Below are positions 1-29,192 of a stretch of 31,167 nt of DNA, in pieces (within the stretch, counting starts at the first letter, position 1; each line of letters opens with the position of its first letter). The translations under genes were made by a program, and so were the position numbers. This DNA comes from a virus. Where the stretch lies: the IMG/VR virus record IMGVR_UViG_3300032053_018295, positions 1 to 31,167 of that record. One strand, given 5' to 3'. The notes under the pieces are model-generated. The model saw only the letters and a program-made list of their open reading frames with translations, did not search any database and was not told the DNA's origin.

Positions 1-1206
1 TTAAGCCACTTTAATTTGAAATACTTTTTTCAAATATGTTGAAAATTCAGCATCTTCACACATTTCTTTTCCATTACTATCTGCAATTTTAGCAACAGGA
101 TTCCATACTCCATCTAATTTAACCCATACAAGTTTCATAACTAATTGAAGAGCGTCTACACCAAGATCATTTGATAGATTGGTGCCTATTCCAAATCCAG
201 TGTTAATTCTTCCACGGAAATGTTCAGCTAAATCAAATGCCTTTTCAAAATTTAAGCCATCACTAAAAACAGCTATTTTAGTAGATGGATTAATTCCTAA
301 AGAGGTATAATGAGCAATAAGTTTTTCGCACCAAGCATATGGGTCGCCACTATCATGACGGCACCCGTCAAACAATTTGGCAAAGTATTTATCAAAGTCT
401 CTTAAAAAAGCATCAAAACCAACAACATCAGATAGTGCAATTCCAAGATCACCACGATATTCTTGAGACCATTTTTCAAGCATAAATTTTTGACTATCAC
501 ATAAGCGTGGTCCAATTGCTTGACCAAGTTGAAGATATTCATGTGCCATTGTACCAAAAACTTTAATGTTAAAATCTTTAGCAAATAAAACATTGCTAGT
601 TCCTACAAAAATTCGATGGTTCATATTTTTTGTAAGAGTTTCAACAACTTCTTTATGCCAAGCATAATTAAATCGACGACGAGTACCCATTTCCGTAATT
701 GTACACGGAAATTGTTTCCCACGACAATTAGCATAGTCAATTTTTGCATTTAAGCGTTCACGAGCTATTGTAAGATCCATATTTGGATATACATTGTGCG
801 TATATATTTCTTGTACTATGGAAAGTACATATATTTCAAACCAACTTACTTCAGTTATAGGACCTTCAGCCCATATTTCCAATTCACCATTATCATTTAC
901 AAAGCAGGATATATATTGGCGTTCTAATTGAAAGCGTTTGAGAAAATCAATAAAATCATCTTTTAACCAAGAAATAGTCCGAAGATATTCAATTTCATCT
1001 TTTTTGAATCGGAGTTGGCATAAAAGGTCAAGTTGTAGATTGATATCATCTACATATGTTGCCAGATTAACTTTTTCAGTTCTATTTTTAAATTTGAATT
1101 TGACCCAAGGTCTTTTAGCACTAAATTGATGGAAGTAAGTTTGTATCATAGAAAATTTATATAAATCGGTATCCAACAATGATTTAATAATAGGGACTAT
1201 AGACAT
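1..1206 (-). CDS. pncB: Nicotinate phosphoribosyltransferase
   Basis: Joins nicotinate to PRPP to give nicotinate mononucleotide, the entry step of the Preiss-Handler NAD salvage pathway; a soluble enzyme. The 401-residue length is that of the bacterial PncB family. Visible family signatures are TEMGTRRRF (about 171-179), GTMAHEYLQ (about 218-226, with the probable catalytic His222), HDSGDP (about residues 285-290), VFSDGLNFEKA and GFGIGTNLSND near the C terminus. The gene is intact; its stop lies at the window edge. A sigma70-like promoter (TTGACA, 17-nt spacer, TATATT) precedes it, suggesting early expression. Phage NAD salvage is known to replenish NAD during infection or after defence-driven depletion; that use here is inferred, supported by other NAD/ADP-ribose genes in the window. 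Confidence 0.93.
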   Translation of the reverse strand: MSIVPIIKSLLDTDLYKFSMIQTYFHQFSAKRPWVKFKFKNRTEKVNLATYVDDINLQLDLLCQLRFKKDEIEYLRTISWLKDDFIDFLKRFQLERQYISCFVNDNGELEIWAEGPITEVSWFEIYVLSIVQEIYTHNVYPNMDLTIARERLNAKIDYANCRGKQFPCTITEMGTRRRFNYAWHKEVVETLTKNMNHRIFVGTSNVLFAKDFNIKVFGTMAHEYLQLGQAIGPRLCDSQKFMLEKWSQEYRGDLGIALSDVVGFDAFLRDFDKYFAKLFDGCRHDSGDPYAWCEKLIAHYTSLGINPSTKIAVFSDGLNFEKAFDLAEHFRGRINTGFGIGTNLSNDLGVDALQLVMKLVWVKLDGVWNPVAKIADSNGKEMCEDAEFSTYLKKVFQIKVA

Positions 1207-1237
1207 ATTACAGCTTTCTTTTTGTTGTTATGTTGCT

Positions 1238-1266
1238 AATATATCTGCATGGATATTATTTGTCAA
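1238..1266 (-). promoter_or_regulatory. sigma70-like promoter of pncB
   Basis: On the minus strand, TTGACA (1266-1261) is followed by a 17-nt spacer and TATATT (1243-1238), with the pncB start at 1206. Similar TTGACA/TATATT pairs precede the tRNA leader (12488-12517) and the HAD/2H operon (24491-24518), so this looks like the phage's early promoter type read by host sigma70. Confidence 0.65.
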
Positions 1267-1283
1267 TCAAATAAAAATAAAAA

Positions 1284-1309
1284 AGCTCTATCTTCCATAA
1301 GATAGAGCT
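1284..1309 (-). terminator. Rho-independent terminator after the ribonucleotide reductase gene
   Basis: Perfect 11-bp stem AGCTCTATCTT/AAGATAGAGCT with a 4-nt loop. The minus-strand RNA ends in a U run (complement of the As at 1280-1284). It lies 17 nt after the nrdJ stop and before the pncB promoter. Confidence 0.85.
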
Positions 1310-1325
1310 TTTTATCATCGCCAAA

Positions 1326-3554
1326 TTACATTCTAACTAATTCACATGCACCACCGGCACACGCTGTAGCAGCATCATCAGATGCATTTTTAGATTCAGA
1401 TACATCTTCAAACATTTCATCCCAAGGAACAGATGTGTATTCTCGTGACAAATCACACCAATCTTTCCAGGAATGCACTTCTTTGAGGCAATATGCCATC
1501 TTTTTAATATCATTATCAAAATAGTTAACTGCAAATTTTTTAGCACGACGAATCCAGTCTTTTTGTGCGTCATTTTGGATAGCATCAGATATACCATAGC
1601 CATTAACAGCATCACAAGCAAGCCATAAATTATTATCAAATACTCGCAAACCATCTACAATTAGACCTGAAGCCATTAATGATCCATTACCATATATTTT
1701 AGCTATTTCAAGTGGTGTATGAACTGCTTGGAATGGTGCCTGTGGATAATCCAAATCACCACTCATGGATAAAAGAGAAATACCGGCAAACCATTTACGA
1801 TTTAGGTAAATATATTCTTCAACATCATCCCATTCTTTTTCATCAATTATGTTACAGGTATTAGATACATTATGTGTAATATTTTTCAATCTAGAGCGTT
1901 CTACTCTAGTACCATAAGTCACCCAATTTTCTTGTACTAATTTTACATCCTCTAATAGTCGTAATGCACTATGATCATTTTTAACACGAGCTCCTTCAGG
2001 AACTTCACATAAAAAACTTATTGAATCATCAGTTCCATTATTTGACCATACAGATTTAACAACAGCTGATTTATTAAAGAGTTTAAAAAACTTTAATGTT
2101 TCTTCATTAATATTAGCTTGTACTCTACGAAAATATCGGCGTGAATGATGTGGATGGATACCGGATGCAGTTCCTAATAACAAACTTGTAGTACCTGCAG
2201 GTTTAACTGCTGTTGTACGAGCTGCTGTATTGATTCCAATGATTGCAGCAACTTCCTCATTTACTTTTTTAATAATATCAACGCCATTGCGCAAAATTTG
2301 AGGATTTAATAAAATTTCAGGAGAATCTTGTATTCCTGTTATTGAGCATCCCAATAATGCCTCTTCTTTTATAACAGCTTCTGTTACATTATATCCAATT
2401 CTCGAATCAAACATATATGGCATTTCAGTATATGCTGCTTGTAATGTACCTATAATAGCAGATGAACGACACACATCATAGAATCCAAGTTCTGTTTTAC
2501 ATTTTCTACCATTAATTTCAGTCAGATTACAAAATGAAAATCCTGTATTTCCTCTTGAATCAATGCAATTTAAACCTATTTCCACACATGGATTAAATCC
2601 AATCTCTAAATCATCAGTCCAAATAAATCCAGGCTCTCCAAAAGACTTAACTGATTTCATAATATGCGCCCACTCTTCTCTGGTGGTGCTATCTCTCAAT
2701 AACATTACACTATTATTTGATCTGCCTCTCTGTGGATTTTCGTAAAACCAATTTCCGGTTTTTGCATTAAGCATTAATTCATCATCTTTTGAAAATAAGG
2801 TAATACAAGCACTGCGTCTAACACCACCAGATAGAACGGCATCAGATGTATGCATTATAATATCATATGCATCAATTGATCGTAGTCTATTTGCGCCAGT
2901 ATCTAATAACTTTTCAATAAGACTTTCTATTTTATTAATAGAATTTATAAGTCCATTTGGACCAGGTGCTTTATGTCCACTTGATTTGATTAATGCGCCT
3001 TCAGGTCTAATTAGTGAATAATCAAATTCTATTTTATAACCATTATATTCTTTAAATTCATTAACTGGATTTTCAAAATATGAATTCATTATTACACCAA
3101 TTGCATCTGCCCATCCCTCTATAGAATCAGGAATAACAAAAGTTTTAACACCTTTAGTTCTTCTAGAAATATTAGAAAGTTTTTCAATATGTTGAGCCTG
3201 AACTGAACTACCTACACCACAACCACAAAGCAATAAATACATACATTCTTGGAATACACGCTCACGATTAATGTGAGAATATGAGCAATTATACATCTTA
3301 GCATTTTGATTGATAATTGCTTGTCCACCAAATTGTAGAGCTCTCTGCGAACCTAAAACTAATTTTCTTTTTACTGCTGTTTTAGCTTCATCAAAATAAG
3401 GTTTAAGTCTATCCATTACTGATTCAAATTTATTTTCGTGCATTTCAAAAACACGCTCTACTTGTTCATCCCATGTCTCGCGTCTTCTTTTTGATGGGTT
3501 ATATCTTGCATATTTTGCTATCCGGGTATACTCTTGGAGTGCCTTAATTGACAT
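1326..3554 (-). CDS. nrdJ: Adenosylcobalamin-dependent (class II) ribonucleoside-triphosphate reductase, monomeric
   Basis: Reduces ribonucleoside triphosphates to deoxy forms using a cobalamin-generated thiyl radical, supplying dNTPs for phage replication. At 742 residues it matches the monomeric Lactobacillus-type enzyme (about 740). Visible residues: Cys90 (MYNCSYS) and Cys342 (FSFCNLTEI) as the active-site disulfide pair, Cys323 in NPCVE as the thiyl-radical cysteine, the TSLLLGTASGIHPHHSRRY motif, and a C-terminal CxxxxC pair (Cys732, Cys737) that would shuttle electrons to the active site. No nrdA/nrdB or nrdD is in the window, so this may be the main phage reductase. It needs host vitamin B12 and a thioredoxin-like reductant. 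The start has a GGAAAA-type ribosome site, and terminators bound the gene on both sides. Confidence 0.92.
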   Translation of the reverse strand: MSIKALQEYTRIAKYARYNPSKRRRETWDEQVERVFEMHENKFESVMDRLKPYFDEAKTAVKRKLVLGSQRALQFGGQAIINQNAKMYNCSYSHINRERVFQECMYLLLCGCGVGSSVQAQHIEKLSNISRRTKGVKTFVIPDSIEGWADAIGVIMNSYFENPVNEFKEYNGYKIEFDYSLIRPEGALIKSSGHKAPGPNGLINSINKIESLIEKLLDTGANRLRSIDAYDIIMHTSDAVLSGGVRRSACITLFSKDDELMLNAKTGNWFYENPQRGRSNNSVMLLRDSTTREEWAHIMKSVKSFGEPGFIWTDDLEIGFNPCVEIGLNCIDSRGNTGFSFCNLTEINGRKCKTELGFYDVCRSSAIIGTLQAAYTEMPYMFDSRIGYNVTEAVIKEEALLGCSITGIQDSPEILLNPQILRNGVDIIKKVNEEVAAIIGINTAARTTAVKPAGTTSLLLGTASGIHPHHSRRYFRRVQANINEETLKFFKLFNKSAVVKSVWSNNGTDDSISFLCEVPEGARVKNDHSALRLLEDVKLVQENWVTYGTRVERSRLKNITHNVSNTCNIIDEKEWDDVEEYIYLNRKWFAGISLLSMSGDLDYPQAPFQAVHTPLEIAKIYGNGSLMASGLIVDGLRVFDNNLWLACDAVNGYGISDAIQNDAQKDWIRRAKKFAVNYFDNDIKKMAYCLKEVHSWKDWCDLSREYTSVPWDEMFEDVSESKNASDDAATACAGGACELVRM

Positions 3555-3585
3555 AAAATTTTCCTTATTTGTTTTTTACCAAAAA

Positions 3586-3625
3586 AAACACACTAATATT
3601 GACTTGAGTCAACAATAGTGTGTTT
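3586..3625 (-). terminator. Terminator after the methyltransferase operon
   Basis: Two 19-nt arms (3586-3604 and 3607-3625) are complementary apart from a 3-nt internal mismatch; on the minus strand they are followed by eight Us (complement of the As at 3581-3588). It closes the 6901-to-3779 operon just upstream of nrdJ. Confidence 0.7.
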
Positions 3626-3642
3626 GCTCATTTATTTATTAA

Positions 3643-3692
3643 ATCACTATAATTTGTATTCTTCAAATGAAGAATATACAAGATATAGTGAT
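3643..3692. other. Long imperfect hairpin between the methyltransferase and nrdJ genes
   Basis: ATCACTATA...TTGTAT...TCTTC at 3643-3664 pairs with 3669-3692 around an AAAT loop, with two small bulges. There is no U tract, so it is not an obvious terminator; it may be an mRNA processing or protective hairpin. The rest of the 3555-3778 gap shows no ORF or RNA gene. Confidence 0.4.
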
Positions 3693-3778
3693 ATTCAATA
3701 AAATATATCCTATCTACAGCAAATAAAATAGAATGTTATTATTCTACTTTAATGCCAAATACTAGGAGTTTGAGTTTA

Positions 3779-4957
3779 TCAATCAAATGAAATTCTATTA
3801 AATAAAATAGACTCTACGATAAGCTCTACGACTCCAATAACTAATGCATTTCCCATTAAAAAACCACGCTTGACATCTGTACAGCCTTCAGTATGATTAT
3901 CAGGAAATCCATTCAATCTTTCTAGTTCAATTGGAGTGAGCCTCCTATAGCGACCACTAGGGCATTTAATGAGGTGAGTTGTCCTAGATGGAGATGAGCC
4001 ACCCTCACTTGTTATTATCGTCCTAGCGGGCTTGTTAGGGCTATCTGGGAACGCCATAGCACCTTCTTTATACAAATAAGAATATCCTGTCTTTGGATCT
4101 ATGCGCTGTTCACTTTTTGATCCCTTTAAATAAGCCCATCGAGAAACAATATCTTCATCAATAAAAAATTTGGATGGCACATCTTCTTCATTCTGAAGAT
4201 AATCGCCAAGTGTTTTAAATGGTCCATTATATTCAGGTACAACATCCCTAGTAACACCTTTTCGATTACTAAAAAATCCACTATTTCTAAAGTCAAATGA
4301 AAAATCTTGTGTTATTTCATGTAATTCACCTATAATATCAAATTCTTTTTCTTTAGTATTTACTTTTTGAATAGATGGAAAGGCTGTTTCAAATACACTT
4401 GCAACCATATCTACTTTAGGTTTCAAATAAGCAAAAATAAATGTTCTTTTCCTTTTTTGAGGAAATCCATATTCAGCTGCATTAATGACTCGCCATTCAA
4501 CTGAATAACCTAAATCACTCAAACATGCTAAAATAATTGCAAAATCTCTACCAGATTGGTTCGCAGGAGATTTTAATAATCTATCTACATTTTCAAGTAA
4601 AATATATGATGGCAATTTAGCAGATAAAATCCTATGGATATCCCACCAAAGAACCCCTTTTTTACCCATAATACCATGTGACCTAACCAAAGGTACCGCT
4701 ACGCTGTAGTTTTGACAAGGAAACCCTCCTACCAACATATTAAAATCAGGTAATGAAGATTCATCAACTTTTGATATATCTTCATTAGAATGGTCGGTAG
4801 ATCCAAATTGCTTTACATAAATATCAGAAGCATGTTGAACCTTAGTAGATGGCTCCCATTGATTACTCCATACAACTTCATAATCACCTGTATTTTCAAG
4901 TGCTACTCTAAATCCACCAACTCCAGCAAATAACTCAATTACTTTTATATTTGACAT
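3779..4957 (-). CDS. DNA (cytosine-5-)-methyltransferase
   Basis: Transfers a methyl group from SAM to C5 of cytosine in DNA. All main C5-MTase motifs are in order in 392 residues: motif I FAGVGGF (about 9-16), motif IV GGFPCQNYS with the nucleophile Cys81, motif VI ENV (122-124), motif VIII QKRKR (167-171), the target-recognition region (about 200-320), motif IX RRLTPIELERLNGFPDNH and motif X GNALVIGVV. It is the last gene of a minus-strand operon and starts 1 nt after the stop of the deoxyribosyltransferase-like gene. No restriction endonuclease is adjacent, so it is probably an orphan methylase protecting phage DNA from host restriction or changing base identity. Target site unknown. Confidence 0.93.
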   Translation of the reverse strand: MSNIKVIELFAGVGGFRVALENTGDYEVVWSNQWEPSTKVQHASDIYVKQFGSTDHSNEDISKVDESSLPDFNMLVGGFPCQNYSVAVPLVRSHGIMGKKGVLWWDIHRILSAKLPSYILLENVDRLLKSPANQSGRDFAIILACLSDLGYSVEWRVINAAEYGFPQKRKRTFIFAYLKPKVDMVASVFETAFPSIQKVNTKEKEFDIIGELHEITQDFSFDFRNSGFFSNRKGVTRDVVPEYNGPFKTLGDYLQNEEDVPSKFFIDEDIVSRWAYLKGSKSEQRIDPKTGYSYLYKEGAMAFPDSPNKPARTIITSEGGSSPSRTTHLIKCPSGRYRRLTPIELERLNGFPDNHTEGCTDVKRGFLMGNALVIGVVELIVESILFNRISFD

Positions 4958-4958
4958 A

Positions 4959-5444
4959 TTATAGACTTGCTAACATACTTGATACATTATTAAAAAAATC
5001 AGATGATGACATATCACTCTCACATACAAACAATGGAACATTTGTTAAAAATGCTAGATTGGTTTGATGTATCACATCTTCTTTTCTTTCATATCCATCT
5101 TCAATGAAAACATAAAATTTCTTTTTTGGATACTGACCACTTAAACAATATTTACCATACTCTAGTAAAACAATAGGTTGTATTGTATCAGAGCTAAAAT
5201 AAAATATAATATGTTCACTTTCTTTTAATCGATTAACTTCCCACTCAATTTGCTCTTTTAAATCTATAAAAGCATTCCATATTTTTCGACGTGGATTGAA
5301 AACAACCCAATCATTGGCTAATGAATCTTTTAATGACTCGGTAATAACTGTTTGCCAATTCCAACAATTTTGTATACCACCAGCCAAAAATATACGACGG
5401 GATTTTTTAAATAATATTTCAGATGGCGCTTCACAATAAATCAT
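4959..5444 (-). CDS. Nucleoside 2-deoxyribosyltransferase-like protein
   Basis: A 161-residue protein resembling the Nuc_deoxyrib_tr2 family, which cleaves or exchanges the base of (deoxy)nucleosides or nucleotides. Visible: RRIFLAGGIQNCWNWQ (about 16-31) as the substrate-binding start, FNPRR (49-53), QIEWE (65-69), HIIFYFSSDTIQPIVLLEYG with Glu95 in the position of the catalytic glutamate. It sits between two cytosine methyltransferases in the same operon, 1 nt before one and 11 nt after the other, which hints at a role in base modification or in processing modified nucleotides. That role is inference; plain nucleotide salvage is the alternative. Confidence 0.75.
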   Translation of the reverse strand: MIYCEAPSEILFKKSRRIFLAGGIQNCWNWQTVITESLKDSLANDWVVFNPRRKIWNAFIDLKEQIEWEVNRLKESEHIIFYFSSDTIQPIVLLEYGKYCLSGQYPKKKFYVFIEDGYERKEDVIHQTNLAFLTNVPLFVCESDMSSSDFFNNVSSMLASL

Positions 5445-5455
5445 AATTTTCTCCT

Positions 5456-6592
5456 TTAGATGAATATATCATCCCATATTTCATTCAATCTGTTTGCAAT
5501 ATGCCAAGCTAATAATGGAGGCACTGCATTTCCTATAATTTTATACCCTTGACTTGGGCTTAATTTAATACTAGAACTATTGATAACAAATTCATAATCA
5601 TCAGGAAATGTTTGTATCATCGCACATTCTCGAACACTTAAACGGCGTTCAGGTAACCCTAACAATAATTCAATGATATTTTTCCCACCATTTTCTAATG
5701 AAAGCCTACGATATTCAATATTACCATGATGCTCTGCTCGGATAGTTGGACCAGGGCCATTAAGATTAATCTCTCTATTGCCTTGTTTTCCTTTTAAAAA
5801 TTTAGCTTTGCTATAAAATTTATGCGATAAATCAGTTGATGAATTTGGTTCATCTATATGTGTAAATAGATTGCCAGTTGTCGCCATTTGGCGTAACGAA
5901 TGGCAATGTGTTTTCATAGGATATGGATCTATATTACATAGCCCATCTTTTTTCATATGACTAATACTGAAGCCAATAAATATGATACGCTCTCTAGTTT
6001 GAGGTACTCCATATTCAATAGCTTTCATAATTTTAGCAGGTACTACAATATAGCCATCACCAATACAACGAAAATCATTTTCTATAATTGATTTGATGTC
6101 TCCAAGACTAGCTAAACCTTTTACATTCTCTGCAATAAATACTTTTGGCTTTACAATACCAATAACTTCACGCAACCAATAGTAAAGCATTCCCCTATTT
6201 TCAATTGATGGTGCATCATCATTTTTGATAGAGCCTGTATGACTTTTAGCTGAATTTAAACCTTGACGCTTACCAGCATAACTAAAATCATTACAGGGAA
6301 ATCCACCGGTAACCACATCAGCTTCTGGAAAAATTGATTCACCCGCTTTATGTCGCTTTACTAAATCAATAACACTATCTAAATGGTAAATACCATCAAT
6401 GTTTCGACGCTTACTAAAATAATTCTCCCATGCTATTTTTGCAGAGGGAAGAATGTCATTCGCAAATATGGTCTCGAATCCGGTTTTCGGAACGAAACCT
6501 CCATCGAAACTTTGTTGATTGATTGAGAATCCACCTTCAAATCCAAGATCCATCCCTCCGCAACCAGTAAATATTGAAACTACTTTACGCAT
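5456..6592 (-). CDS. DNA (cytosine-5-)-methyltransferase (second copy type)
   Basis: SAM-dependent C5-cytosine DNA methyltransferase of 378 residues. Motifs: I IFTGCGGMDLGFEGG (about 7-21), IV GGFPCNDFS with catalytic Cys100, VI ENVKGL (155-160), VIII PQTRERIIF, IX RRLSVRECAMIQTFPDDYEF and X GYKIIGNAVPPLLAWHIANR. Its sequence and its target-recognition region are clearly different from the 3779-4957 enzyme, so it is not a recent duplicate and probably recognises another site. It starts 6 nt after the small unknown gene at 6599 and is co-transcribed with it. No matching restriction enzyme is present. Confidence 0.93.
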   Translation of the reverse strand: MRKVVSIFTGCGGMDLGFEGGFSINQQSFDGGFVPKTGFETIFANDILPSAKIAWENYFSKRRNIDGIYHLDSVIDLVKRHKAGESIFPEADVVTGGFPCNDFSYAGKRQGLNSAKSHTGSIKNDDAPSIENRGMLYYWLREVIGIVKPKVFIAENVKGLASLGDIKSIIENDFRCIGDGYIVVPAKIMKAIEYGVPQTRERIIFIGFSISHMKKDGLCNIDPYPMKTHCHSLRQMATTGNLFTHIDEPNSSTDLSHKFYSKAKFLKGKQGNREINLNGPGPTIRAEHHGNIEYRRLSLENGGKNIIELLLGLPERRLSVRECAMIQTFPDDYEFVINSSSIKLSPSQGYKIIGNAVPPLLAWHIANRLNEIWDDIFI

Positions 6593-15403: not shown

Positions 15404-15517
15404 TCATATTATTTGTGTTCTTCGTCCAGTTTTTTTATATTTCCATTTATATTGCTCATATAGCCACTCTTTATCATTAAGGAGTGGGTATTTTCTAGAA
15501 ATTGATTTTCGTTTCAT
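15404..15517 (-). CDS. 37-residue basic protein coupled to the PARP gene
   Basis: ATG at 15517 overlaps the TGA stop of the PARP gene (ATGA), so translation is probably coupled. The product (MKRKSISRKYPLLNDKEWLY..., ending TGRRTQII) is strongly basic. YPLLNDKEWLYEQY resembles the first helix of helix-turn-helix segments found in phage homing endonucleases, after which the sequence departs and stops. It could be a truncated remnant of such a gene, possibly left by or associated with element R1 just downstream, or a small DNA- or RNA-binding partner of the PARP. Confidence 0.55.
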   Translation of the reverse strand: MKRKSISRKYPLLNDKEWLYEQYKWKYKKTGRRTQII

Positions 15518-16821
15518 TTATCTGAAAACTCTACTAAGTATTTTAGATTACATTGGCCTAGTCGATATACTATCATCTCATTATTCATCACACCAGATTG
15601 ACCACCTTTAGCAAAGGTTGAATCAAAGCCTGGTTTTGGTAAATTATTAGATGTACCGGTTGGTACAAAATATTTACCCATAGCAACATCAGCAAGAAAC
15701 ATAAAGCAATTATTATCTTTAGCATTTCTATCCCAATAACCTTGTGCATAATTAAGACTTTTGGTGCTCTGATCACTGAAGTATGCACCATCACCAAAAA
15801 GTCTTCCACATACATGAGGTGCATTAGATTTAGGAATCATTAGACCAGATTTAAGAATTGATAACACATTAGATACTCGTGTACCATGCCAAAGTTCCAT
15901 CACACCGCCAACATTTAAACCATCTTTAGTATAGCCTTCTACCATATCAGCGATTTCTACACTAAATACACGTTTAACTTTAAGTATACTAGAAGTATGC
16001 ATAGTTTGTCTAGTTTTATTAAAGAATGCGATAATATAATCGATGATAGATTGATCTGTAACCAATTCAAGTGATGTTTTAAACACAACAGGAATATCTT
16101 TTGGTTTTTTATCGGCATCATCATCAGTTGTTACTGGCACAGTAAGGACTTGTTGTAGGGATGCATCTAAAGAATCAAGAATTTGTATTTCTTGTTCAAA
16201 TGACTTTACATTAGGGAAAATATCTTTTGGATCTAATTTTCTACCAACTTTTCTAGGTATTAATTGGATATAAGTTTGTAATTTTTTGATAAAATCTTTA
16301 TCAATATAATCATTTTTTTCAACATATGGCAATAGTTCATCGAGTAAAACACGAGCCTCATCAATACCTTCTTGTGTTACAATGCCACAAGGTGTTGAAA
16401 ATGTTCCTTTTTTAGCATCATATGTCATTGTAGTAGAGCTAACAATATTATGAACATTTGCTTTTATAAGGTAGCGAATCAAATCAGCAGATTCTTTTGA
16501 TGAGTTTGAGATTTGGTTTAATGCAATATCGAGTAAATTGTCGGATTGCGTTTTAACTTCAACATTAGTAGAAGCAATAACTTTTAGTTTCGTGTAACCT
16601 TTAGTGGTGCCTTCTTTTTCTTTACATTTTTTTTCAAAAAAAGAATTTGCAGCATATTCACTTGAAAAATTTTTATTATCTGTTTGAGCATTTTCATTGC
16701 CCACACGACCATATTTGACTTCAATAGAATGGTCGTCATATTGAGCTATATACCAAAATTTATTATTATTTTTTGCAACATCTGACTTGATGTATTTTGC
16801 TTCACGAACTAGATTTGCCAT
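15514..16821 (-). CDS. WGR-domain PARP-type ADP-ribosyltransferase
   Basis: 435 residues with eukaryote-like PARP architecture. Residues 1-83 form a WGR-type domain (FWYIAQYDD..IEVKYGRVG), about 95-225 a helical regulatory domain, and 245-435 the catalytic domain. The H-Y-E triad is complete: LWHGTR (His312), GDGAYFSD (Tyr347), NNEMIVY (Glu415). It should move ADP-ribose from NAD to protein or nucleic acid; the WGR domain in PARPs binds DNA ends and RNA. T4 uses unrelated ADP-ribosyltransferases (Alt, ModA/B). The gene follows tRNA-Arg(CCT), has AGGAGA before the ATG, and overlaps a 37-codon gene. Target unknown: host takeover or DNA protection are possible. Confidence 0.9.
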   Translation of the reverse strand: MANLVREAKYIKSDVAKNNNKFWYIAQYDDHSIEVKYGRVGNENAQTDNKNFSSEYAANSFFEKKCKEKEGTTKGYTKLKVIASTNVEVKTQSDNLLDIALNQISNSSKESADLIRYLIKANVHNIVSSTTMTYDAKKGTFSTPCGIVTQEGIDEARVLLDELLPYVEKNDYIDKDFIKKLQTYIQLIPRKVGRKLDPKDIFPNVKSFEQEIQILDSLDASLQQVLTVPVTTDDDADKKPKDIPVVFKTSLELVTDQSIIDYIIAFFNKTRQTMHTSSILKVKRVFSVEIADMVEGYTKDGLNVGGVMELWHGTRVSNVLSILKSGLMIPKSNAPHVCGRLFGDGAYFSDQSTKSLNYAQGYWDRNAKDNNCFMFLADVAMGKYFVPTGTSNNLPKPGFDSTFAKGGQSGVMNNEMIVYRLGQCNLKYLVEFSDK

Positions 16822-18207: not shown

Positions 18208-18471
18208 TTAGACTTTTTTCTTTATTTCAGAAATATCTGAACCTATTGTTTGAAATATTTTAGTAATAGTTTTAAAATCATCTGCAATAGATTTTATAGA
18301 AGTGGATATCAATTTGATTTCTTCAATCATCTTATCCATTTTTTGTGTTTCTTCTCTTTTACGAGTATCTGCACCGCGTGAATATTCTTTCATCTGTTTT
18401 GATATTTCTTCAGCACTTTTTGATAAGCGTTCTAATTCTCTAAATTCTGTTTGATTTAATGCAGCAGTCAT
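18208..18471 (-). CDS. Coiled-coil protein
   Basis: 87 residues from the ATG at 18471 (MTAALNQTEF), chosen for the strong GAGGGAAG site and the ATGA overlap with the HNH gene stop. Almost wholly helical and charged, with heptad-like hydrophobics from about residue 12 on (LERLSKSAEEISKQMKEY, IEEIKLISTSIKSIADDF). Likely oligomeric; role unknown. Confidence 0.65.
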   Translation of the reverse strand: MTAALNQTEFRELERLSKSAEEISKQMKEYSRGADTRKREETQKMDKMIEEIKLISTSIKSIADDFKTITKIFQTIGSDISEIKKKV

Positions 18472-19097
18472 TCTTCCCTCACTTTTTCGGTTGTACTTAC
18501 AACCCAATATATATATGGTCGCCAGGATTCATGTGGAATCCTCCCACCTATTTTATTTATAACACTCTTAGGTACAGATTTATCTAATGTAGGAATACCA
18601 ACCCTAGTTCTAAGCTTCCAACCTAAATCTGATATTAGCTTATCACTTTTTATATTATTACAACTTAAACAAGATGCCCTTACATTACACCAATCATCTA
18701 GACCACCTTTTGATAATGGATATACATGATCAATCGTCATAGTAGTGATAGTTAATGGAATTCCACAATATACACATTTTGATTTATCTCTATCAAGTAT
18801 ATTTCTTTTTGTTAATGGCAATACTTTTACCATTATAGTTGATTTTGCTTTTGCATGTGGTTTACGAATAATAGATGGACAATCCATTTCTATTGTTCGA
18901 TTTCCTTTTTTATCAAAAGCACTTCTTAATGTAAAATCATCATATGAACTTACAATTTCAGCTCGTCCAGCAAAATAATCTGAAATAGCTTCTTCCCATG
19001 AAACAACATCTGTTGGAGAATATGCAGCATTTAATACTAAAACTTTAGGTATTGCACTATCCAATAAATTTCTTTCATTTTTTTGTTTAGACCGCAT
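18468..19097 (-). CDS. HNH endonuclease
   Basis: 209 residues from the ATG at 19097, which has AAGGTGG 5 nt upstream. The N terminus (VLVLNAAYSPTDVVSWEEAISDYFAGRAEIV) is typical of a widespread HNH family; the nuclease core is CVYCGIPL (zinc CxxC), TIDHVYPLSKGG (DH catalytic pair), CLSCNN (second CxxC and Asn). Metal-dependent DNA nuclease; it could be a free-standing homing enzyme or take part in host DNA breakdown. It is coupled to the downstream coiled-coil gene. Confidence 0.88.
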   Translation of the reverse strand: MRSKQKNERNLLDSAIPKVLVLNAAYSPTDVVSWEEAISDYFAGRAEIVSSYDDFTLRSAFDKKGNRTIEMDCPSIIRKPHAKAKSTIMVKVLPLTKRNILDRDKSKCVYCGIPLTITTMTIDHVYPLSKGGLDDWCNVRASCLSCNNIKSDKLISDLGWKLRTRVGIPTLDKSVPKSVINKIGGRIPHESWRPYIYWVVSTTEKVREE

Positions 19098-19144
19098 AAT
19101 AACCACCTTTTTTTTAAATCTATTTTATTTTTTTGCTATAAAAC

Positions 19145-23876: not shown

Positions 23877-24484
23877 TTCAATGAAAACCTAGAGTCTGCT
23901 TTTAATACATCTAATATATCTTTTTCATCATTTATTGGTAAATGATAAATAGGATATTTTACATGCTTTATATTGACCAACAAAGGGCGCTGTGTTTTTG
24001 AATATGTTTCAGCCCATTTTGTAAAATATTTAATATGAGAATCTCGATCATCCCATATAGTTACTTCTAAAATGTTAGGATTGTCTTTAAGAATTTTTTC
24101 AATTACACCTATTTTATAATTGAATGTAGTATAGTCTTCACTTGGTTTAAGTAAAATTCTATCAAAAAACAATTCTTTTTCAATCAAAAGCTTCTCAATT
24201 AATGGTCTAAATTCTTCCAATCGTCCTGTCATCATAATAGTCATTGTATCTTTATCATGAATTGCATTTTTTGCTGCATCTACAGTCGGTTGAATGAAGT
24301 TATTCACTGTTGCATACTTTGGATTTAATGTAATGACATTATGATGCCATCCATACCCATTTCCATTGTATGAATTCGTTATTTTACCAAAGGTCTTATT
24401 GTCATATAACACTGGGTTTGGTTGTGGATTTCGATACAATGTTCCATCAAAATCAAATACTTGTAGTTTTTTTATATTATTCAT
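23873..24484 (-). CDS. HAD-superfamily 'Swiss Army Knife' RNA-repair-like phosphatase
   Basis: 203 residues. LQVFDFDGTLYRNPQPNPVLYD (about 8-29) holds the HAD motif I DxDGT, followed by the family-specific PxPN; GYGWHHNVITLNP, MMTGRLEEF (motif II Thr) and VTIWDDRDSH (motif IV acidic pair) complete the active site. This matches the HAD_SAK_1 family, linked to 2H phosphoesterase and RNA-repair domains. With the overlapping 2H gene it could heal cleaved RNA ends. An early-type promoter precedes it. No RNA ligase is seen in the window. Confidence 0.75.
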   Translation of the reverse strand: MNNIKKLQVFDFDGTLYRNPQPNPVLYDNKTFGKITNSYNGNGYGWHHNVITLNPKYATVNNFIQPTVDAAKNAIHDKDTMTIMMTGRLEEFRPLIEKLLIEKELFFDRILLKPSEDYTTFNYKIGVIEKILKDNPNILEVTIWDDRDSHIKYFTKWAETYSKTQRPLLVNIKHVKYPIYHLPINDEKDILDVLKADSRFSLK

Positions 24485-24490
24485 ACCAGA

Positions 24491-24518
24491 AATATATCAA
24501 TTAATTAACATATGTCAA
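24491..24518 (-). promoter_or_regulatory. sigma70-like promoter of the HAD/2H/Nudix genes
   Basis: TTGACA (24518-24513), 16-nt spacer, TATATT (24496-24491) on the minus strand, 7 nt before the HAD start. It is back to back with the plus-strand late box at 24519-24526, marking the early/late divergence. Confidence 0.6.
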
Positions 24519-24526
24519 TATAAACC
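24519..24526 (+). promoter_or_regulatory. Late-promoter box TATAAACC
   Basis: TATAAACC 26 nt before the ATG at 24553, the same spacing as the TATAAACT boxes of other virion-type genes. Confidence 0.5.
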
Positions 24527-24552
24527 ATAATTTACTATACACAAGGTGAATT

Positions 24553-25428
24553 ATGAGAAGAATTAACATACACATTGATGAAGAAACGGATGATTCCGTT
24601 GATTTATTAGCTGAAATATTAGGAGTAAGTCGTTCTGAAGTTTTTAGAAAAGCAGTTGCATTGTTTTCTAAATCAAATAAAACTTCTATTGAAGAACATT
24701 TATCTTCATTTTCATTACCTGTAAATGATGTCGTTGCCGAAGAAGATTCCCTTCGGGAAATTATGTCGGCGGCGTTTCCATTTCAATCTATAATAATGTT
24801 TCCCTGGCAATATGATTTATTTAACAAGATTAAAGATTTTCAATTAACAGTTATTGCAACATCTAGACAACTAGGAATGACAACTTTTATGTTGGCTTAT
24901 TGTGTACTTGAAGCTGCTTTAAAAAAAGATAGCAATGTTATATTCGTTACCAGCAATCATAATTTTATACAACTAAAATCATATGTTAAACGTATGATGG
25001 ATAAAGCATCAGAGATTTTTGGTTTAACAAATATTAATCGAGCATCAACTTTTTCAAATGGATCTAGAGTAGACATTATAACATCCTCAAAACTTGAAGA
25101 TGTACATTCATGTAATGCTACGCCATCTTTTATTTACTTTGATGATTATGCATTTTTAAAGAAACACAACCATACATTTATTTCTGATGTAATGCTATCT
25201 AGATTATTAGAAAGCAATTGTAAAATAGTATTTGGTTCGGTGCCAAATGGATTTAATCATTTTTTTCATCTTTACGATGAAGCCAATATTAAAGAAGGAT
25301 GGCAATCTATCAAATTAGATATCAATCATAATTTATTAATAGATAAAGAAAGGATTGAAAAATTAAAACTATCACTGAATCAATTTGATTGGATGCAAGA
25401 ATTCAACTGCATATTTATGGAGTCATAA
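24553..25428 (+). CDS. Ribbon-helix-helix / terminase-ATPase-like fusion
   Basis: 291 residues. The first 50 (RINIHIDEETDDSVDLLAEILGVSRSEVFRKAVALF) are a ribbon-helix-helix DNA-binding domain. Residues about 85-285 resemble the ATPase half of T4-type TerL: FPWQYDLF, TSRQLGMTT at the Walker A (the usual Lys is Met), FIYFDDYAF at Walker B, FGSVPNGFNHFFHLYD (coupling motif) and a C-terminal QEFNCIF matching the TerL linker. No nuclease domain follows. It directly precedes TerL, 1 nt apart, in the place of a small terminase. A DNA-recognition subunit derived from a duplicated TerL ATPase is inferred. AAGGTG precedes the ATG. Confidence 0.75.
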   Translation: MRRINIHIDEETDDSVDLLAEILGVSRSEVFRKAVALFSKSNKTSIEEHLSSFSLPVNDVVAEEDSLREIMSAAFPFQSIIMFPWQYDLFNKIKDFQLTVIATSRQLGMTTFMLAYCVLEAALKKDSNVIFVTSNHNFIQLKSYVKRMMDKASEIFGLTNINRASTFSNGSRVDIITSSKLEDVHSCNATPSFIYFDDYAFLKKHNHTFISDVMLSRLLESNCKIVFGSVPNGFNHFFHLYDEANIKEGWQSIKLDINHNLLIDKERIEKLKLSLNQFDWMQEFNCIFMES

Positions 25429-25429
25429 A

Positions 25430-27217
25430 ATGGCATTCAGTGGCATAATGAATTTAAGAGGTGATGAGCGTGTAAAAATGCTTCCTTGGCAACTTGAGGA
25501 GCTTAGAAAATGCGCATTAGATCCTATATATTTTATAAAAACCTATGTATATATCACAACAAAAGATGAGGGAACTCAATTATTTAAGATGTGGGATTTC
25601 CAGGAAGATTTAGTAAGAAAGTTTGACCAACATCGATTTAATATTGTAAAATTCCCACGTCAATGTGGAAAAAGTTCTACAACTCGTGCTTATTTACTAT
25701 GGTATGCAATATTCAGTGAAAACAAATTGATTGCAATGTTAGGTAATAAGCTTGCATTAGCTAAAGAACAATTACAATTACTGCGTGAATCATATCTACA
25801 TCTTCCTTATTGGCTACAACCTGGTGTAAAATCTTGGAGTAAACTTAGTGTAGAGTTTTCACATGGAACACGAATAATTGTATCAGCAACATCACCAGAT
25901 AATATTCGTGGTCTTGCAATTAATACTATTTTTCTAGATGAGTTTGCGTTCGTAAAACCGCATATCGCTGATGATTTTATAGCATCTGTATTTCCTACCG
26001 TTTCATCTGGTAAAACTACAAAAGTTATTATAACAAGTACGCCATGTGGGATGAATCAATTTTATAGAATGTGGCAAGAATCCGTTCCTGAACCTGAAGT
26101 AGGAACGACTGATGATTTTATTCGTTCTGAAATTACATGGGATAGCGTACCGGGTAGGGATGAAGAGTGGGCAAGAGTTGAACAGAAAAGAATAGGTGAA
26201 ATACGTTTTAATCAGGAATATAAATGTATTGGTTATGATGAAACAATAACCGTTAGAAATAAAAATACAGGTATAATTGAAACTTATAAAATTGGAGATT
26301 TTTATGAAAAAATTAAAAAATCCAATTTAGCGAGTGAACGAGCAAAAAAACGCTTTTCCGATCCTATTAAAAAAGCTGAAATACTTGAAAAAAGAAAAAT
26401 TACAAATCTAAAACGTTATGGTTGTGCATACGCTTCTCAAAATATTGAGATTAAGCAAAAAGTTAAAGATACAGTTTTTAAAAAATTTGGTGTTGCTTGC
26501 TCTACAAAAATAGAATCAGTTAAACAAGCTAGAATAAATGCACTTGAAAATAATAAAGAAAAAATAAACCAAAAACGAAAAAACTATTGGACGGATGAAG
26601 CTAAAGCTAATGCATTAGAAAAAAGAATAAATTCCAATTTGTTAAAATATGGCGTTAAAAGTGTTGTTGAACTACCTTATATTAAAGATAAGATTAGTAA
26701 AAAAGCATTGGAAAGATTTTCAGATCCAAGTGAAAAATTGCGTTTTAAAGCATTCATTTTTTCCAAATATGGTGTTGAAAATATAATGCAAGTTCCTTGG
26801 GTAAAGGATAAAGCAAAAGAATCATGTATAAAAAAATTTAAATCATATACATATTTAGGTTCTGACAATCGTAGAAGTAAAATGGAGTTAAAAAAAATAT
26901 GGACTCCTATATCACGATTTTCAGAATTTAAACGCTATAAAATACAATGTGCTAAAGAAACTCGAAAACACATCAAAGAATTGTTTTCTTTATGGAATGG
27001 TCGATGTTATTATACTGATGCTGAACTGATAATAGATCAAAATAAATATAATCATCCTCTATATCGAACAATAGATCATATAATCCCAATACAATATGGT
27101 TTTGTAAATCAAATTCCACCTTGGGAAATAGGTGACATCAAAAATATGGTAATATGTAGTCGATCTTACAATTCTTTTAAAGGTAATAGAATATTGGAGG
27201 GAGTAAATGTTAATTAA
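25430..27217 (+). CDS. terL: Terminase large subunit, N-extein, with split-intein N fragment and HNH homing endonuclease
   Basis: 595 residues from the ATG at 25430 (MAFSGIMNLR), after GGAG. Residues 1-265 are the TerL ATPase: Walker A KFPRQCGKSS (Lys81), Walker B TIFLDEFAF (Asp170, Glu171), ITSTPCGMNQFYRMW. At Cys266 (codon 26225-26227) an intein starts (CIGYDETITV...IGDFYEKI), only about 35 residues of it. The rest is a homing endonuclease: four or more repeats of the type KRYGC..SQNIEIKQKV / KYGVENIMQVPWVKDKA, then an HNH core TIDHIIPI...VICSRSYNSFKGNR. The ORF then stops; the second half is at 27207. Packaging motor function returns only after protein trans-splicing. Confidence 0.88.
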   Translation: MAFSGIMNLRGDERVKMLPWQLEELRKCALDPIYFIKTYVYITTKDEGTQLFKMWDFQEDLVRKFDQHRFNIVKFPRQCGKSSTTRAYLLWYAIFSENKLIAMLGNKLALAKEQLQLLRESYLHLPYWLQPGVKSWSKLSVEFSHGTRIIVSATSPDNIRGLAINTIFLDEFAFVKPHIADDFIASVFPTVSSGKTTKVIITSTPCGMNQFYRMWQESVPEPEVGTTDDFIRSEITWDSVPGRDEEWARVEQKRIGEIRFNQEYKCIGYDETITVRNKNTGIIETYKIGDFYEKIKKSNLASERAKKRFSDPIKKAEILEKRKITNLKRYGCAYASQNIEIKQKVKDTVFKKFGVACSTKIESVKQARINALENNKEKINQKRKNYWTDEAKANALEKRINSNLLKYGVKSVVELPYIKDKISKKALERFSDPSEKLRFKAFIFSKYGVENIMQVPWVKDKAKESCIKKFKSYTYLGSDNRRSKMELKKIWTPISRFSEFKRYKIQCAKETRKHIKELFSLWNGRCYYTDAELIIDQNKYNHPLYRTIDHIIPIQYGFVNQIPPWEIGDIKNMVICSRSYNSFKGNRILEGVNVN

Positions 27218-27527
27218 AAATGATAAATATGAAATCTTAACTCCATTTGGATTTAAATCATTTGATGGTATTTCAAAAACACCTGCTCAAGCAGGCGTTA
27301 TTTTACATTTAAGTAATGGACATAAATTTAAATGCGCATGTAATCATTTATTAATGACAGATGTTGGCTTTAAACCTGCGGTAGATTTATATAAAAAAAC
27401 AGTTCTTTTTACTGGCTTAAATGTAACAGTTGATTTAATCGAAAATACTTATGATGAATTTTATGATGCAATTCAAGTTGATACAACTGATCATTCCTAT
27501 GTCTCATCAAACCTAATCTCTCATAAT
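26225..27527 (+). mobile_element. Atypically split intein (AceL-TerL type) with embedded HNH endonuclease
   Basis: The inserted DNA runs from the Cys1 codon to the Asn codon before Cys+1 (HN/C at 27522-27530). The N fragment is about 35 residues (block A only), the C fragment 107 residues holding the NGF-like FGFKSFDGI, block B CACNH, and the C-terminal SSNLISHN. Removal restores QEYK-CEFIGS, a normal TerL sequence. The HNH domain lies at the split site, as in fractured genes with homing endonucleases. Confidence 0.85.
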
Positions 27528-28433
27528 TGTGAATTTATAGGCAGTATATCAACATTAATTGACCACACATTTCTTAAAGAAATGAAAGCTGTCACACCTT
27601 TAGTTATTAGCCGATTACCAAGTTATATCAAAGTATGGCAACTTCCCTTACCAAAAGAACGATTAGAGCGTGAGAATTGGGAATATGTTGCTAGTTTGGA
27701 TACTGGATATGGTGTGCATATGGATAGTACCGTTCTTCAACTATGTCTTGTTAAATCAAATATCACAATACATCAAGTTGCTAAAATGTATAGTAATTCT
27801 ATGGATGTTGAGTTGTTTTGTAAAAGGGCAAGAGAATTATTAAAAAGCTACCATGATCCTAGTTTAATTATTGAACAAAATGGTCCAGGCGCAGTAGCAA
27901 CTACTTGGTTTCACTCAACCGCTGAATATGAAGGTCTTTTACATTTTGATGGTGGTGTTAGGCATATGGGTCTATGGGCTACGGATAAGATGAAAGAAAA
28001 TGCTGTAATCCTTATTAAGGCATATATTCAACGTGGGTTTCTAAAAATATCAGATATCGATACTATGGATGAATTGAAAAGTTTTGGTCGCGTTGGTGTT
28101 AATAAATGGGGTGCAATGGGTGGAAATCATGATGACCATGTGACTTCATTATATTGGATTCCTTATTATCTTAATACACAATTATTCTATGGAAATATCA
28201 TTGATGTAAACTTACAACAGCTTATGGATGATGAAATTATTCTTGGTGTACATAAAGATGAGGAAGATGATAAAAGACTTCATACTGAACGGAATGGACC
28301 TATAAGTAATATGTCCAAAATAATGGAAGATGCAACTAAATATATGGATAGAAATCGATTTTATAATGTTCCATCACCATTTGATAAGTATGGAAATGAT
28401 AATGATTCTAGTGTATCAGTTTTTAAATTATAA
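27207..28433 (+). CDS. terL: Split-intein C fragment and terminase large subunit, C-extein (nuclease)
   Basis: 408 residues. The ATG at 27207 has a strong GGAGGGAG site placed inside the end of the previous ORF (11-nt overlap), so the C half is made separately. Residues 1-107 are the intein C fragment (YEILTPFGFKSFDGI, CACNHLL, ISHN). From Cys108 the TerL C-extein continues: CEFIGSISTLI, then the RNase H-like nuclease with SLDTGYG (Asp), LIIEQNGPG (Glu) and GGNHDDHVTSL (Asp). Joined exteins total 566 residues, the normal T4-type TerL size. Confidence 0.9.
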   Translation: MLIKNDKYEILTPFGFKSFDGISKTPAQAGVILHLSNGHKFKCACNHLLMTDVGFKPAVDLYKKTVLFTGLNVTVDLIENTYDEFYDAIQVDTTDHSYVSSNLISHNCEFIGSISTLIDHTFLKEMKAVTPLVISRLPSYIKVWQLPLPKERLERENWEYVASLDTGYGVHMDSTVLQLCLVKSNITIHQVAKMYSNSMDVELFCKRARELLKSYHDPSLIIEQNGPGAVATTWFHSTAEYEGLLHFDGGVRHMGLWATDKMKENAVILIKAYIQRGFLKISDIDTMDELKSFGRVGVNKWGAMGGNHDDHVTSLYWIPYYLNTQLFYGNIIDVNLQQLMDDEIILGVHKDEEDDKRLHTERNGPISNMSKIMEDATKYMDRNRFYNVPSPFDKYGNDNDSSVSVFKL

Positions 28434-28447
28434 TTAGGTTATTATTT

Positions 28448-28488
28448 GGTTGGCAATCATTTGTTCGATGGACAAATCAGTGCCAACC
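28448..28488. other. Two-tier hairpin after terL
   Basis: GGTTGGCA/TGCCAACC (8 bp) encloses ATTTGT/ACAAAT (6 bp) around a TCGATGG loop. There is no T run, so it is not a standard terminator; it could protect or process the terL mRNA. Confidence 0.45.
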
Positions 28489-28506
28489 ATATTACTATAT
28501 CAAACC

Positions 28507-28514
28507 TATAAACT
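28507..28514 (+). promoter_or_regulatory. Late-promoter box TATAAACT
   Basis: TATAAACT 27 nt before the ATG at 28542, matching the boxes at 8095 and 13141. Confidence 0.55.
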
Positions 28515-28541
28515 TATAAAATATGACTAGAGGCTATTTTT

Positions 28542-29192
28542 ATGAAAGGATTCGGTTACTTCAACAACTTTGATGACCTCCAAAAATTAACAGCAAAATT
28601 TGAACATGCTGATCTTATTCCTATGGAAGATGAAGACCCAGAGGATTTTGACAATGTAGAGGTTCCGTTGCTTGATAAGGGAGATTTTATTAAATCAACA
28701 ACTACTAAAGATGAGAAAAAACCCAAAGGAAGCGCAGCTTCTCCAAATCCAAATGATGGTGAAGGTGAAGATGATGATTCTATTTTTGGAAATTATGAAA
28801 GTTTAGGTGGAATGGGACTGAACTTGGATAAAGAATTAGCAACAATGGAAGCATTTCAACCAGGTCAATCAGTAGATGATTCAGGTGAAGCGACAGCTCA
28901 TGATAGAACTGATTTAGCTAAACGTGATAAGTTAGATACATCTGATGTAAAAAAATTATTTGATGAAATGTTCAGTAAAAATTATACAGGACCGGGTGCA
29001 GGTAAATATACATATGACCAATGGGCTGGAAATCAAAATACTATAATTGATTTAGGTGTTAAAAAAACATTTGATTCAAGACCTGTTACTAATATACAGA
29101 CTACTAGTATTCCAATGGCAAGAATTCCAAATAACCAAGCAAATAGTCAAGCAAATAAGCTTAATAAGAATAGTAAAAATACGAGATTATAA
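28542..29192 (+). CDS. Unknown, largely disordered late protein
   Basis: 216 residues, acidic in the first half (DEDPEDFDNVEVP, DGEGEDDDSIFG) and Asn/Gln/Lys-rich at the end. Not recognised. It has a late box, lies after terL and is coupled by TAATG to the next gene, so a structural or assembly role is likely but unproven. A short predicted helix lies at about 130-150 (SDVKKLFDEMFSKNY). Confidence 0.6.
   Translation: MKGFGYFNNFDDLQKLTAKFEHADLIPMEDEDPEDFDNVEVPLLDKGDFIKSTTTKDEKKPKGSAASPNPNDGEGEDDDSIFGNYESLGGMGLNLDKELATMEAFQPGQSVDDSGEATAHDRTDLAKRDKLDTSDVKKLFDEMFSKNYTGPGAGKYTYDQWAGNQNTIIDLGVKKTFDSRPVTNIQTTSIPMARIPNNQANSQANKLNKNSKNTRL

What the first reader, a model, noticed from the sequence alone, without database searches (positions are those of the whole stretch)
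25430..28433. Terminase large subunit split by an atypical intein carrying an HNH domain
The intein N fragment is only about 35 residues and the C fragment 107, like AceL-TerL, and the HNH endonuclease is fused in frame behind the N fragment instead of being free-standing. The second half has its own strong ribosome site overlapping the first ORF. Splicing restores QEYK-CEFIGS.
Basis: partly seen in the sequence, partly recalled or inferred. Interest (0 to 1): 0.72.

Follow-up and report, generated by a model that had tools for sequence, protein, structure and literature searches.

The report
Phage split intein carrying a nuclease
A phage's DNA-packaging motor gene is broken in two by a self-splicing protein element whose DNA-cutting enzyme is fused to the first half; the type of element is known and widespread, but this nuclease in this position was not seen in any of about 125 relatives examined.

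Summary
ORF 25430-27217 is a T4-type terminase ATPase domain, a ~30-35-residue intein N-fragment, and an HNH nuclease with DUF7487 repeats. ORF 27207-28433 is a 107-residue intein C-fragment plus the terminase nuclease domain. Removing the intein gives a 566-residue TerL that aligns gap-free at QEYK|CEFIGS with the intein-less TerLs of close relatives. A leave-one-out IntC profile hits the second ORF at E 4e-19; the splicing residues are present, with a few unusual substitutions nearby.

The kind is known: atypically split TerL inteins (AceL-TerL, GOS-TerL, PX29). In 125 distinct junctions at this site, 82 have a free-standing ORF (mostly GIY-YIG, HNH or Vsr-like endonucleases) between the halves, 25 are split without one, 7 are contiguous mini-inteins, 4 fuse a nuclease to IntC and 5 fuse one to IntN. 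Four of those five are GIY-YIG; the window is the only HNH. The same HNH family occurs at this split free-standing (5 loci) and fused to IntC (L219). The window's copy lacks the ~100-residue N-terminal Zn-finger-like region, so a single frameshift artefact is unlikely. The nuclease follows block A, not the canonical site. Splicing and cleavage are inferred, not shown.

The parts
25430..26224 (+). N-extein: T4 gp17-type TerL ATPase domain (265 aa), ends QEYK
   Evidence: Pfam Terminase_6N E 2.8e-12; PDB T4 gp17 E 6e-38; 62-69% identity to intein-less TerLs L136-L142
26225..26329 (+). Intein N-fragment (Cys1 at 26225; profile match to about residue 30, then start of linker)
   Evidence: IntN profile built without the window matches residues 268-295 of ORF1
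26381..27214 (+). DUF7487-repeat + HNH homing-type endonuclease fused in frame behind IntN
   Evidence: DUF7487 E 1e-15; leave-out profile of homologues E 2.3e-62; homology starts near intein residue 53
27005..27190 (+). HNH (beta-beta-alpha metal) catalytic region, DH...N...N
   Evidence: HNH_4 E 0.0084 on the isolated domain, below cut-off; D249, H250, N272, N281 invariant in 9 homologues; structural second look led by an HNH nicking endonuclease, Z 5.9
27196..27200 (+). Shine-Dalgarno GGAGG, 6 nt before the ATG of the second ORF
   Evidence: sequence
27207..27217 (+). 11-nt overlap of ORF1 stop and ORF2 start
   Evidence: 11 nt is the second commonest nuclease/IntC overlap in relatives
27207..27527 (+). 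Intein C-fragment, 107 aa, ends SHN
   Evidence: leave-one-out profile E 3.9e-19; 6dsl CatC E 3.3e-6
27528..28430 (+). C-extein: TerL nuclease (RNase H-like) domain, starts CEFIGS (+1 Cys)
   Evidence: PDB gp17 / TerL nuclease E 1e-8 to 3e-8; 48-62% identity to intein-less TerLs

Best explanation
This is a naturally split, class 1 intein in a T4-type terminase large subunit, of the atypical kind with a very short N-fragment, in which an HNH homing-type endonuclease has become fused to the N-fragment. One mRNA probably gives two polypeptides by coupled translation: ATPase-IntN-HNH (595 aa) and IntC-nuclease (408 aa). IntN docks into IntC, trans-splicing joins QEYK to CEFIGS, and a 566-residue TerL results. 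This frees a 330-residue IntN-HNH protein and the 107-residue IntC. The HNH protein then probably cuts the conserved TerL site of intein-less phages in mixed infections, so that repair copies the intein into them. Shown here by sequence: the domains, the exact empty site, the conserved splicing residues, the family membership and the arrangement. Inferred: coupled translation, splicing, release of the nuclease, DNA cleavage and homing.
For: Empty-site relatives align gap-free across the junction. IntN and IntC profiles built without the window match. Cys1, the block B His (79 of 79), the block F Asp (75 of 79), the penultimate His and terminal Asn (79 of 79) and +1 Cys are present. At this site 117 of 125 distinct junctions are split, most with an ORF exactly in the gap. 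The nuclease family of the window was found independently, by its own homology, at the same intein in six other loci: five free-standing (L060, L222, L223, L224, L227) and one fused to IntC (L219). The 11-nt overlap and the strong ribosome site match the conserved nuclease/IntC junction. In-frame start codons inside the HNH part begin about 400 nt after Cys1, and none of the first six has a Shine-Dalgarno-like motif, so an intact nuclease can probably only be made as the fusion.
Against: The window departs from the family at four otherwise well-kept positions: Thr6 is Glu (68 Thr, 8 Ser, 3 Ala of 79), Gly4 is Tyr (4 of 79 relatives share it), the block B Ser/Thr is Ala (two relatives, L053 and L079, share it) and the block G Asn is Ser (unique). 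Splicing could be slow. No close relative carries the same insertion, so selection on it cannot be measured. The HNH call rests on motif, homologues and a weak structural match. No experiment was done.
Confidence: 0.8

Rival explanations
1. Splicing works, but the HNH part is no longer an active homing endonuclease; it is a decaying passenger on IntN.
For: Loss of the N-terminal ~100-residue Zn-finger-like region present in the free-standing homologues; the same nuclease is frameshifted in L227 and L228; 25 of 125 junctions are split without a nuclease.
Against: The ORF is open over about 290 codons and the HNH signature residues are intact in the window; L219 also lacks the N-terminal region.
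Confidence: 0.3
2. No splicing: a two-piece terminase (genes in pieces) in which the ATPase and nuclease polypeptides work side by side, as in the nrdA gene of phage Aeh1 split by a homing endonuclease (PMC2988022).
For: The break falls after T4-type residue 353, near the ATPase/nuclease domain border (border from own knowledge); several intein positions are unusual.
Against: A complete set of splicing residues and a full IntC are kept; the Aeh1 type of split gene has no intein halves (own knowledge).
Confidence: 0.1
3. Sequencing or assembly artefact: the true state is a free-standing nuclease, or a continuous intein, disturbed by a frame error.
For: Single metagenomic contig; free-standing is the usual arrangement.
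Against: A frame error cannot remove about 100 residues at the nuclease N terminus; the second junction has a proper ribosome site and the usual overlap; four other loci show IntN-GIY-YIG fusions.
Confidence: 0.04
4. One long polypeptide made by programmed frameshifting at the overlap, so that the intein splices in cis.
For: The ORFs overlap by 11 nt in different frames.
Against: Own start codon and GGAGG at the second ORF; relatives have the same overlap between free-standing nuclease genes and IntC.
Confidence: 0.04

Closest known systems
AceL-TerL and GOS-TerL atypical split inteins (and the consensus CatTerL, PDB 6dsl)
   Same: Host protein TerL, short IntN (25 and 37 aa in the literature) and ~104-aa IntC; the window's IntC matches 6dsl over nearly its whole length
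   Different: The window adds an HNH domain in frame behind IntN; the literature available here describes no such fusion
Split gene 17 of Aeromonas phage PX29 (17A 'putative N-intein', 17B 'putative GIY-YIG endonuclease and C-intein')
   Same: Same insertion site and split; nuclease between the intein halves
   Different: GIY-YIG nuclease fused to IntC, not HNH fused to IntN
Vibriophages K469, 1.244.A and VP-1 and IMG/VR locus L292
   Same: Nuclease fused in frame behind IntN at the same site, IntC on a second overlapping ORF
   Different: GIY-YIG nuclease; the phage genes are deposited only as terminase, coil-containing or hypothetical protein
DUF7487-HNH nucleases at the same intein (L060, L222, L223, L224, L227 free-standing; L219 fused to IntC)
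   Same: Same nuclease family, same split site
   Different: Free-standing copies have a start codon and an N-terminal Zn-finger-like region; L219 is fused on the other side
'Fractured genes' of Dassa et al. 2009 (known to me from citations and memory; the paper is not held)
   Same: Split intein interrupted by a homing endonuclease gene
   Different: From own knowledge those are split at the canonical site with a free-standing Vsr-like nuclease

Membership tests
Atypically split TerL intein (AceL-TerL type) | Host gene is TerL and the intein sits at the shared site | tested here: met
   Gap-free empty-site alignment; same site in 125 distinct junctions
Atypically split TerL intein (AceL-TerL type) | Short IntN (about 25-37 aa) and IntC of about 105 aa on separate ORFs | tested here: met
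   IntN match to about residue 30; IntC 107 aa on its own ORF
Atypically split TerL intein (AceL-TerL type) | IntC homology to the family | tested here: met
   Leave-one-out E 3.9e-19; 6dsl E 3.3e-6
Class 1 intein | Cys1/Ser1, block B His, block F Asp, penultimate His, terminal Asn, +1 nucleophile | tested here: met
   All present; block B Ser/Thr replaced by Ala and block A Thr6 by Glu
Class 1 intein | Splicing activity | not testable with these tools
   Needs co-expression
HNH nuclease with DUF7487 repeats | DUF7487 repeats | tested here: met
   PF24308 E 1e-15, above cut-off
HNH nuclease with DUF7487 repeats | Homology to phage nucleases of this architecture | tested here: met
   Leave-out profile E 2.3e-62
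HNH nuclease with DUF7487 repeats | Pfam HNH model above cut-off | tested here: inconclusive
   HNH_4 16.5 bits against a cut-off of 22; signature residues invariant; structural second look led by an HNH nicking endonuclease at Z 5.9, a middling value
Full-length intein with canonical endonuclease insertion | Nuclease inserted at the conserved site between the block B and block F regions (C35) | tested here: not met
   Nuclease follows block A; IntC carries no insert; canonical-site rule from PMC6801210
Group I or II intron in TerL | Intron RNA in the insert | tested here: not met
   No Rfam match up to E 1 in 24400-28700
T4 gp17-type terminase large subunit | ATPase and RNase H-like domains of gp17 type | tested here: met

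The most novel reading that the evidence does not exclude
The nuclease has invaded the intein at a site other than the canonical one, and the break in the chain right after it is what lets the intein tolerate it. Trans-splicing then doubles as the release step for an IntN-HNH homing enzyme that cannot be made in any other way, so the nuclease is freed from the packaging motor only when the second half is present.
Probability: 0.25. Interest if true: 0.68.

Novelty: new variant of a known kind. Interest (0 to 1): 0.52.

Why it matters
A published structural study states that all endonuclease domains inside inteins sit at one conserved site and argues that other sites are sterically blocked (PMC6801210). 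Here, and across a large TerL family, nucleases of several types sit after block A instead, nearly always together with a chain break. One nuclease family occurs at this break in three states: free-standing, fused to IntC and fused to IntN. That series makes the questions of how split inteins arise and why the endonuclease site is conserved directly testable. It also offers a natural split intein whose N-fragment tolerates a ~295-residue C-terminal fusion, if splicing is confirmed.

Tried and rejected
RNA-level splicing: no Rfam match up to E 1 in 24400-28700. Close relatives of the nuclease by single-sequence search of IMG/VR: none; an alignment was needed. Relatives of the second ORF in GTDB genomes: none. 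Placing the window's intein in a tree: unresolved. The free search put it weakly with the contiguous mini-intein L127 (82/89), but a tree holding it with the other DUF7487-HNH inteins scored better by 8 log units (p-AU 0.64), so neither order of events is favoured. Foldseek on the nuclease model: nothing significant (best E 1.2, an HNH nuclease). L069's 157-residue IntN tail was first counted as a fusion but shows no recognisable nuclease, so it is left out of the five. L308's long contiguous frame, and L067's similar frame at the P-loop site, look like out-of-frame reading and were not counted as intein-nuclease fusions. Dassa et al. 2009 could not be read.

Full report
What is there. The window is a 31,167-base IMG/VR virus record. 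ORF1 (25430-27217, 595 aa) and ORF2 (27207-28433, 408 aa) overlap by 11 nt in different frames. ORF1 begins with the ATPase domain of a T4 gp17-type terminase (Pfam Terminase_6N E 2.8e-12; T4 gp17 in the PDB E 6e-38). ORF2 ends with the gp17 nuclease domain (E about 1e-8).

The intein. A profile of intein C-fragments from relatives, built without the window, matches ORF2 residues 1-107 at 74.7 bits, and the solved consensus atypical intein CatC matches at E 3.3e-6. The N-fragment profile, also built without the window, finds residues 268-295 of ORF1. Cys1, the block B His, block F Asp, penultimate His, terminal Asn and +1 Cys are present. Four positions are unusual: block A Thr6 is Glu, Gly4 is Tyr, the block B Ser/Thr is Ala and the block G Asn is Ser.

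The empty site. Six close relatives (L136, L137, L139, L140, L141, L142; 62-69% identical in the ATPase part and 48-62% in the nuclease part) have continuous, intein-less TerLs. The window's sequence with the intein taken out aligns to them without a gap across the junction: QEYK|CEFIGS against QEYK|CDFIGS (L139) and QEYK|CEFVGS (L141). This fixes both boundaries and shows that the insertion is absent from those relatives. The corresponding point in phage RB51 gp17 is after residue 353.

The nuclease. The last ~280 residues of ORF1 hold DUF7487 repeats (E 1e-15) and an HNH domain. The HNH Pfam model is below its cut-off, but a profile of homologous phage nucleases without the window hits ORF1 at E 2.3e-62, the D-H, N and N residues are invariant in nine homologues, and the predicted structure (mean pLDDT 80) matches an HNH nicking endonuclease best in a structural second look (Z 5.9); Foldseek alone was not significant.

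How it compares. A pattern for the IntC/C-extein junction was scanned through IMG/VR three times, and phage records were added. Among 125 distinct junctions at this site, 82 have a free-standing ORF between IntN and IntC, 25 are split with no nuclease, 7 are contiguous mini-inteins, 1 is a long contiguous frame of doubtful meaning, 4 fuse a nuclease to IntC and 6 carry a long tail on IntN, of which 5 are nucleases (L069 is not recognisable). Of the five, four are GIY-YIG (vibriophages K469, 1.244.A and VP-1, and IMG/VR L292); the window alone is HNH. The free-standing ORFs examined are mainly GIY-YIG, with HNH and Vsr-like ones; this typing was by motif and by a few Pfam checks, and the free-standing ORFs added by the later scans were counted but not typed, except that all loci were searched with the DUF7487-HNH profile.

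The same nuclease in three states. Searching with the nuclease alone, not with the intein, brought up the same intein again. The DUF7487-HNH nuclease is free-standing between IntN and IntC in L060, L222, L223, L224 and L227 (frameshifted in the last) and fused in frame to IntC in L219. L222 and L223 are near-identical. In L222 the nuclease starts 6 nt after the IntN stop codon and overlaps the IntC start by 4 nt. The window's copy joins IntN directly to the repeats and lacks the ~100-residue Zn-finger-like N terminus of the free-standing copies. A fusion by deletion explains this better than a frame error. The intein tree cannot say whether the window's copy descends from the free-standing ones.

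Expression. ORF2 has GGAGG 6 nt before its ATG. Overlaps of 4-29 nt between the nuclease stop and the IntC start are the rule in relatives, and 11 nt is the second commonest value. In-frame start codons inside the nuclease part begin about 400 nt after Cys1 and the first six have no Shine-Dalgarno-like motif. An intact nuclease is therefore probably made only as part of the 595-residue precursor and would be released by splicing. These are inferences from sequence.

Position of the nuclease. A review and a structural study state that endonuclease domains in inteins sit between the splicing blocks at one conserved site. In the window the nuclease follows block A, and the IntC has no insert. The exact correspondence to the alternative site discussed in that paper was not worked out here.

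Verdict. It is a new variant of a known, widespread kind. The arrangement is rare but not unique in form; the HNH-to-IntN fusion was found only here.

Noticed in passing
window 24553-25428 (+): Directly upstream of TerL lies a ribbon-helix-helix domain fused to a TerL-ATPase-like domain that lacks the Walker A lysine and has no nuclease domain. The same gene precedes TerL in L136, L137, L139, L140, L141, L142 and L144, with the lysine lost in all; a second, shorter copy occurs in L136 and L137. It could act as a small terminase or a regulator.
   Followed up: partly
window 15514-16821 (-): WGR domain plus poly(ADP-ribose) polymerase catalytic domain (Pfam PARP E 5e-27) in a phage contig.
   Followed up: no
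window 1-6592 (-): NAPRTase, a class II-like ribonucleotide reductase and two C5-cytosine methylases close together.
   Followed up: no
window 18468-19106 (-): A second HNH endonuclease gene, of another Pfam HNH family and well above the cut-off.
   Followed up: no
L126 (minus strand, ORF from 2126, 528 aa): At the TerL Walker B site a contiguous intein appears to hold a GIY-YIG-like segment after block A rather than at the canonical site, with no chain break; judged by eye only.
   Followed up: partly
L227 3126-3965 and L228 191-1030: The DUF7487-HNH nuclease between intact intein halves is frameshifted: the intein seems to outlive its nuclease.
   Followed up: partly
L004, L224, L227, L060, L109, L118: Several TerLs carry two inteins, one at the P-loop and one at the window's site.
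   Followed up: no
L003 (Escherichia phage phiS): Gene 17 is split after Walker B by IntN fused to a TnsA/endonuclease I-like nuclease, with IntC on a second ORF; annotated only as DNA packaging enzyme and terminase large subunit.
   Followed up: partly
L098 1810-4109 and L061: L098 has the start of the C-extein twice, once joined to the N-extein and once behind an IntC; in L061 the ATPase half and the IntC half lie on opposite strands.
   Followed up: no
L143 5884 onward: A close relative of the window has a contiguous intein with a long, LAGLIDADG-like insert (by eye) at a different TerL site, after ITS and before TPSG.
   Followed up: no
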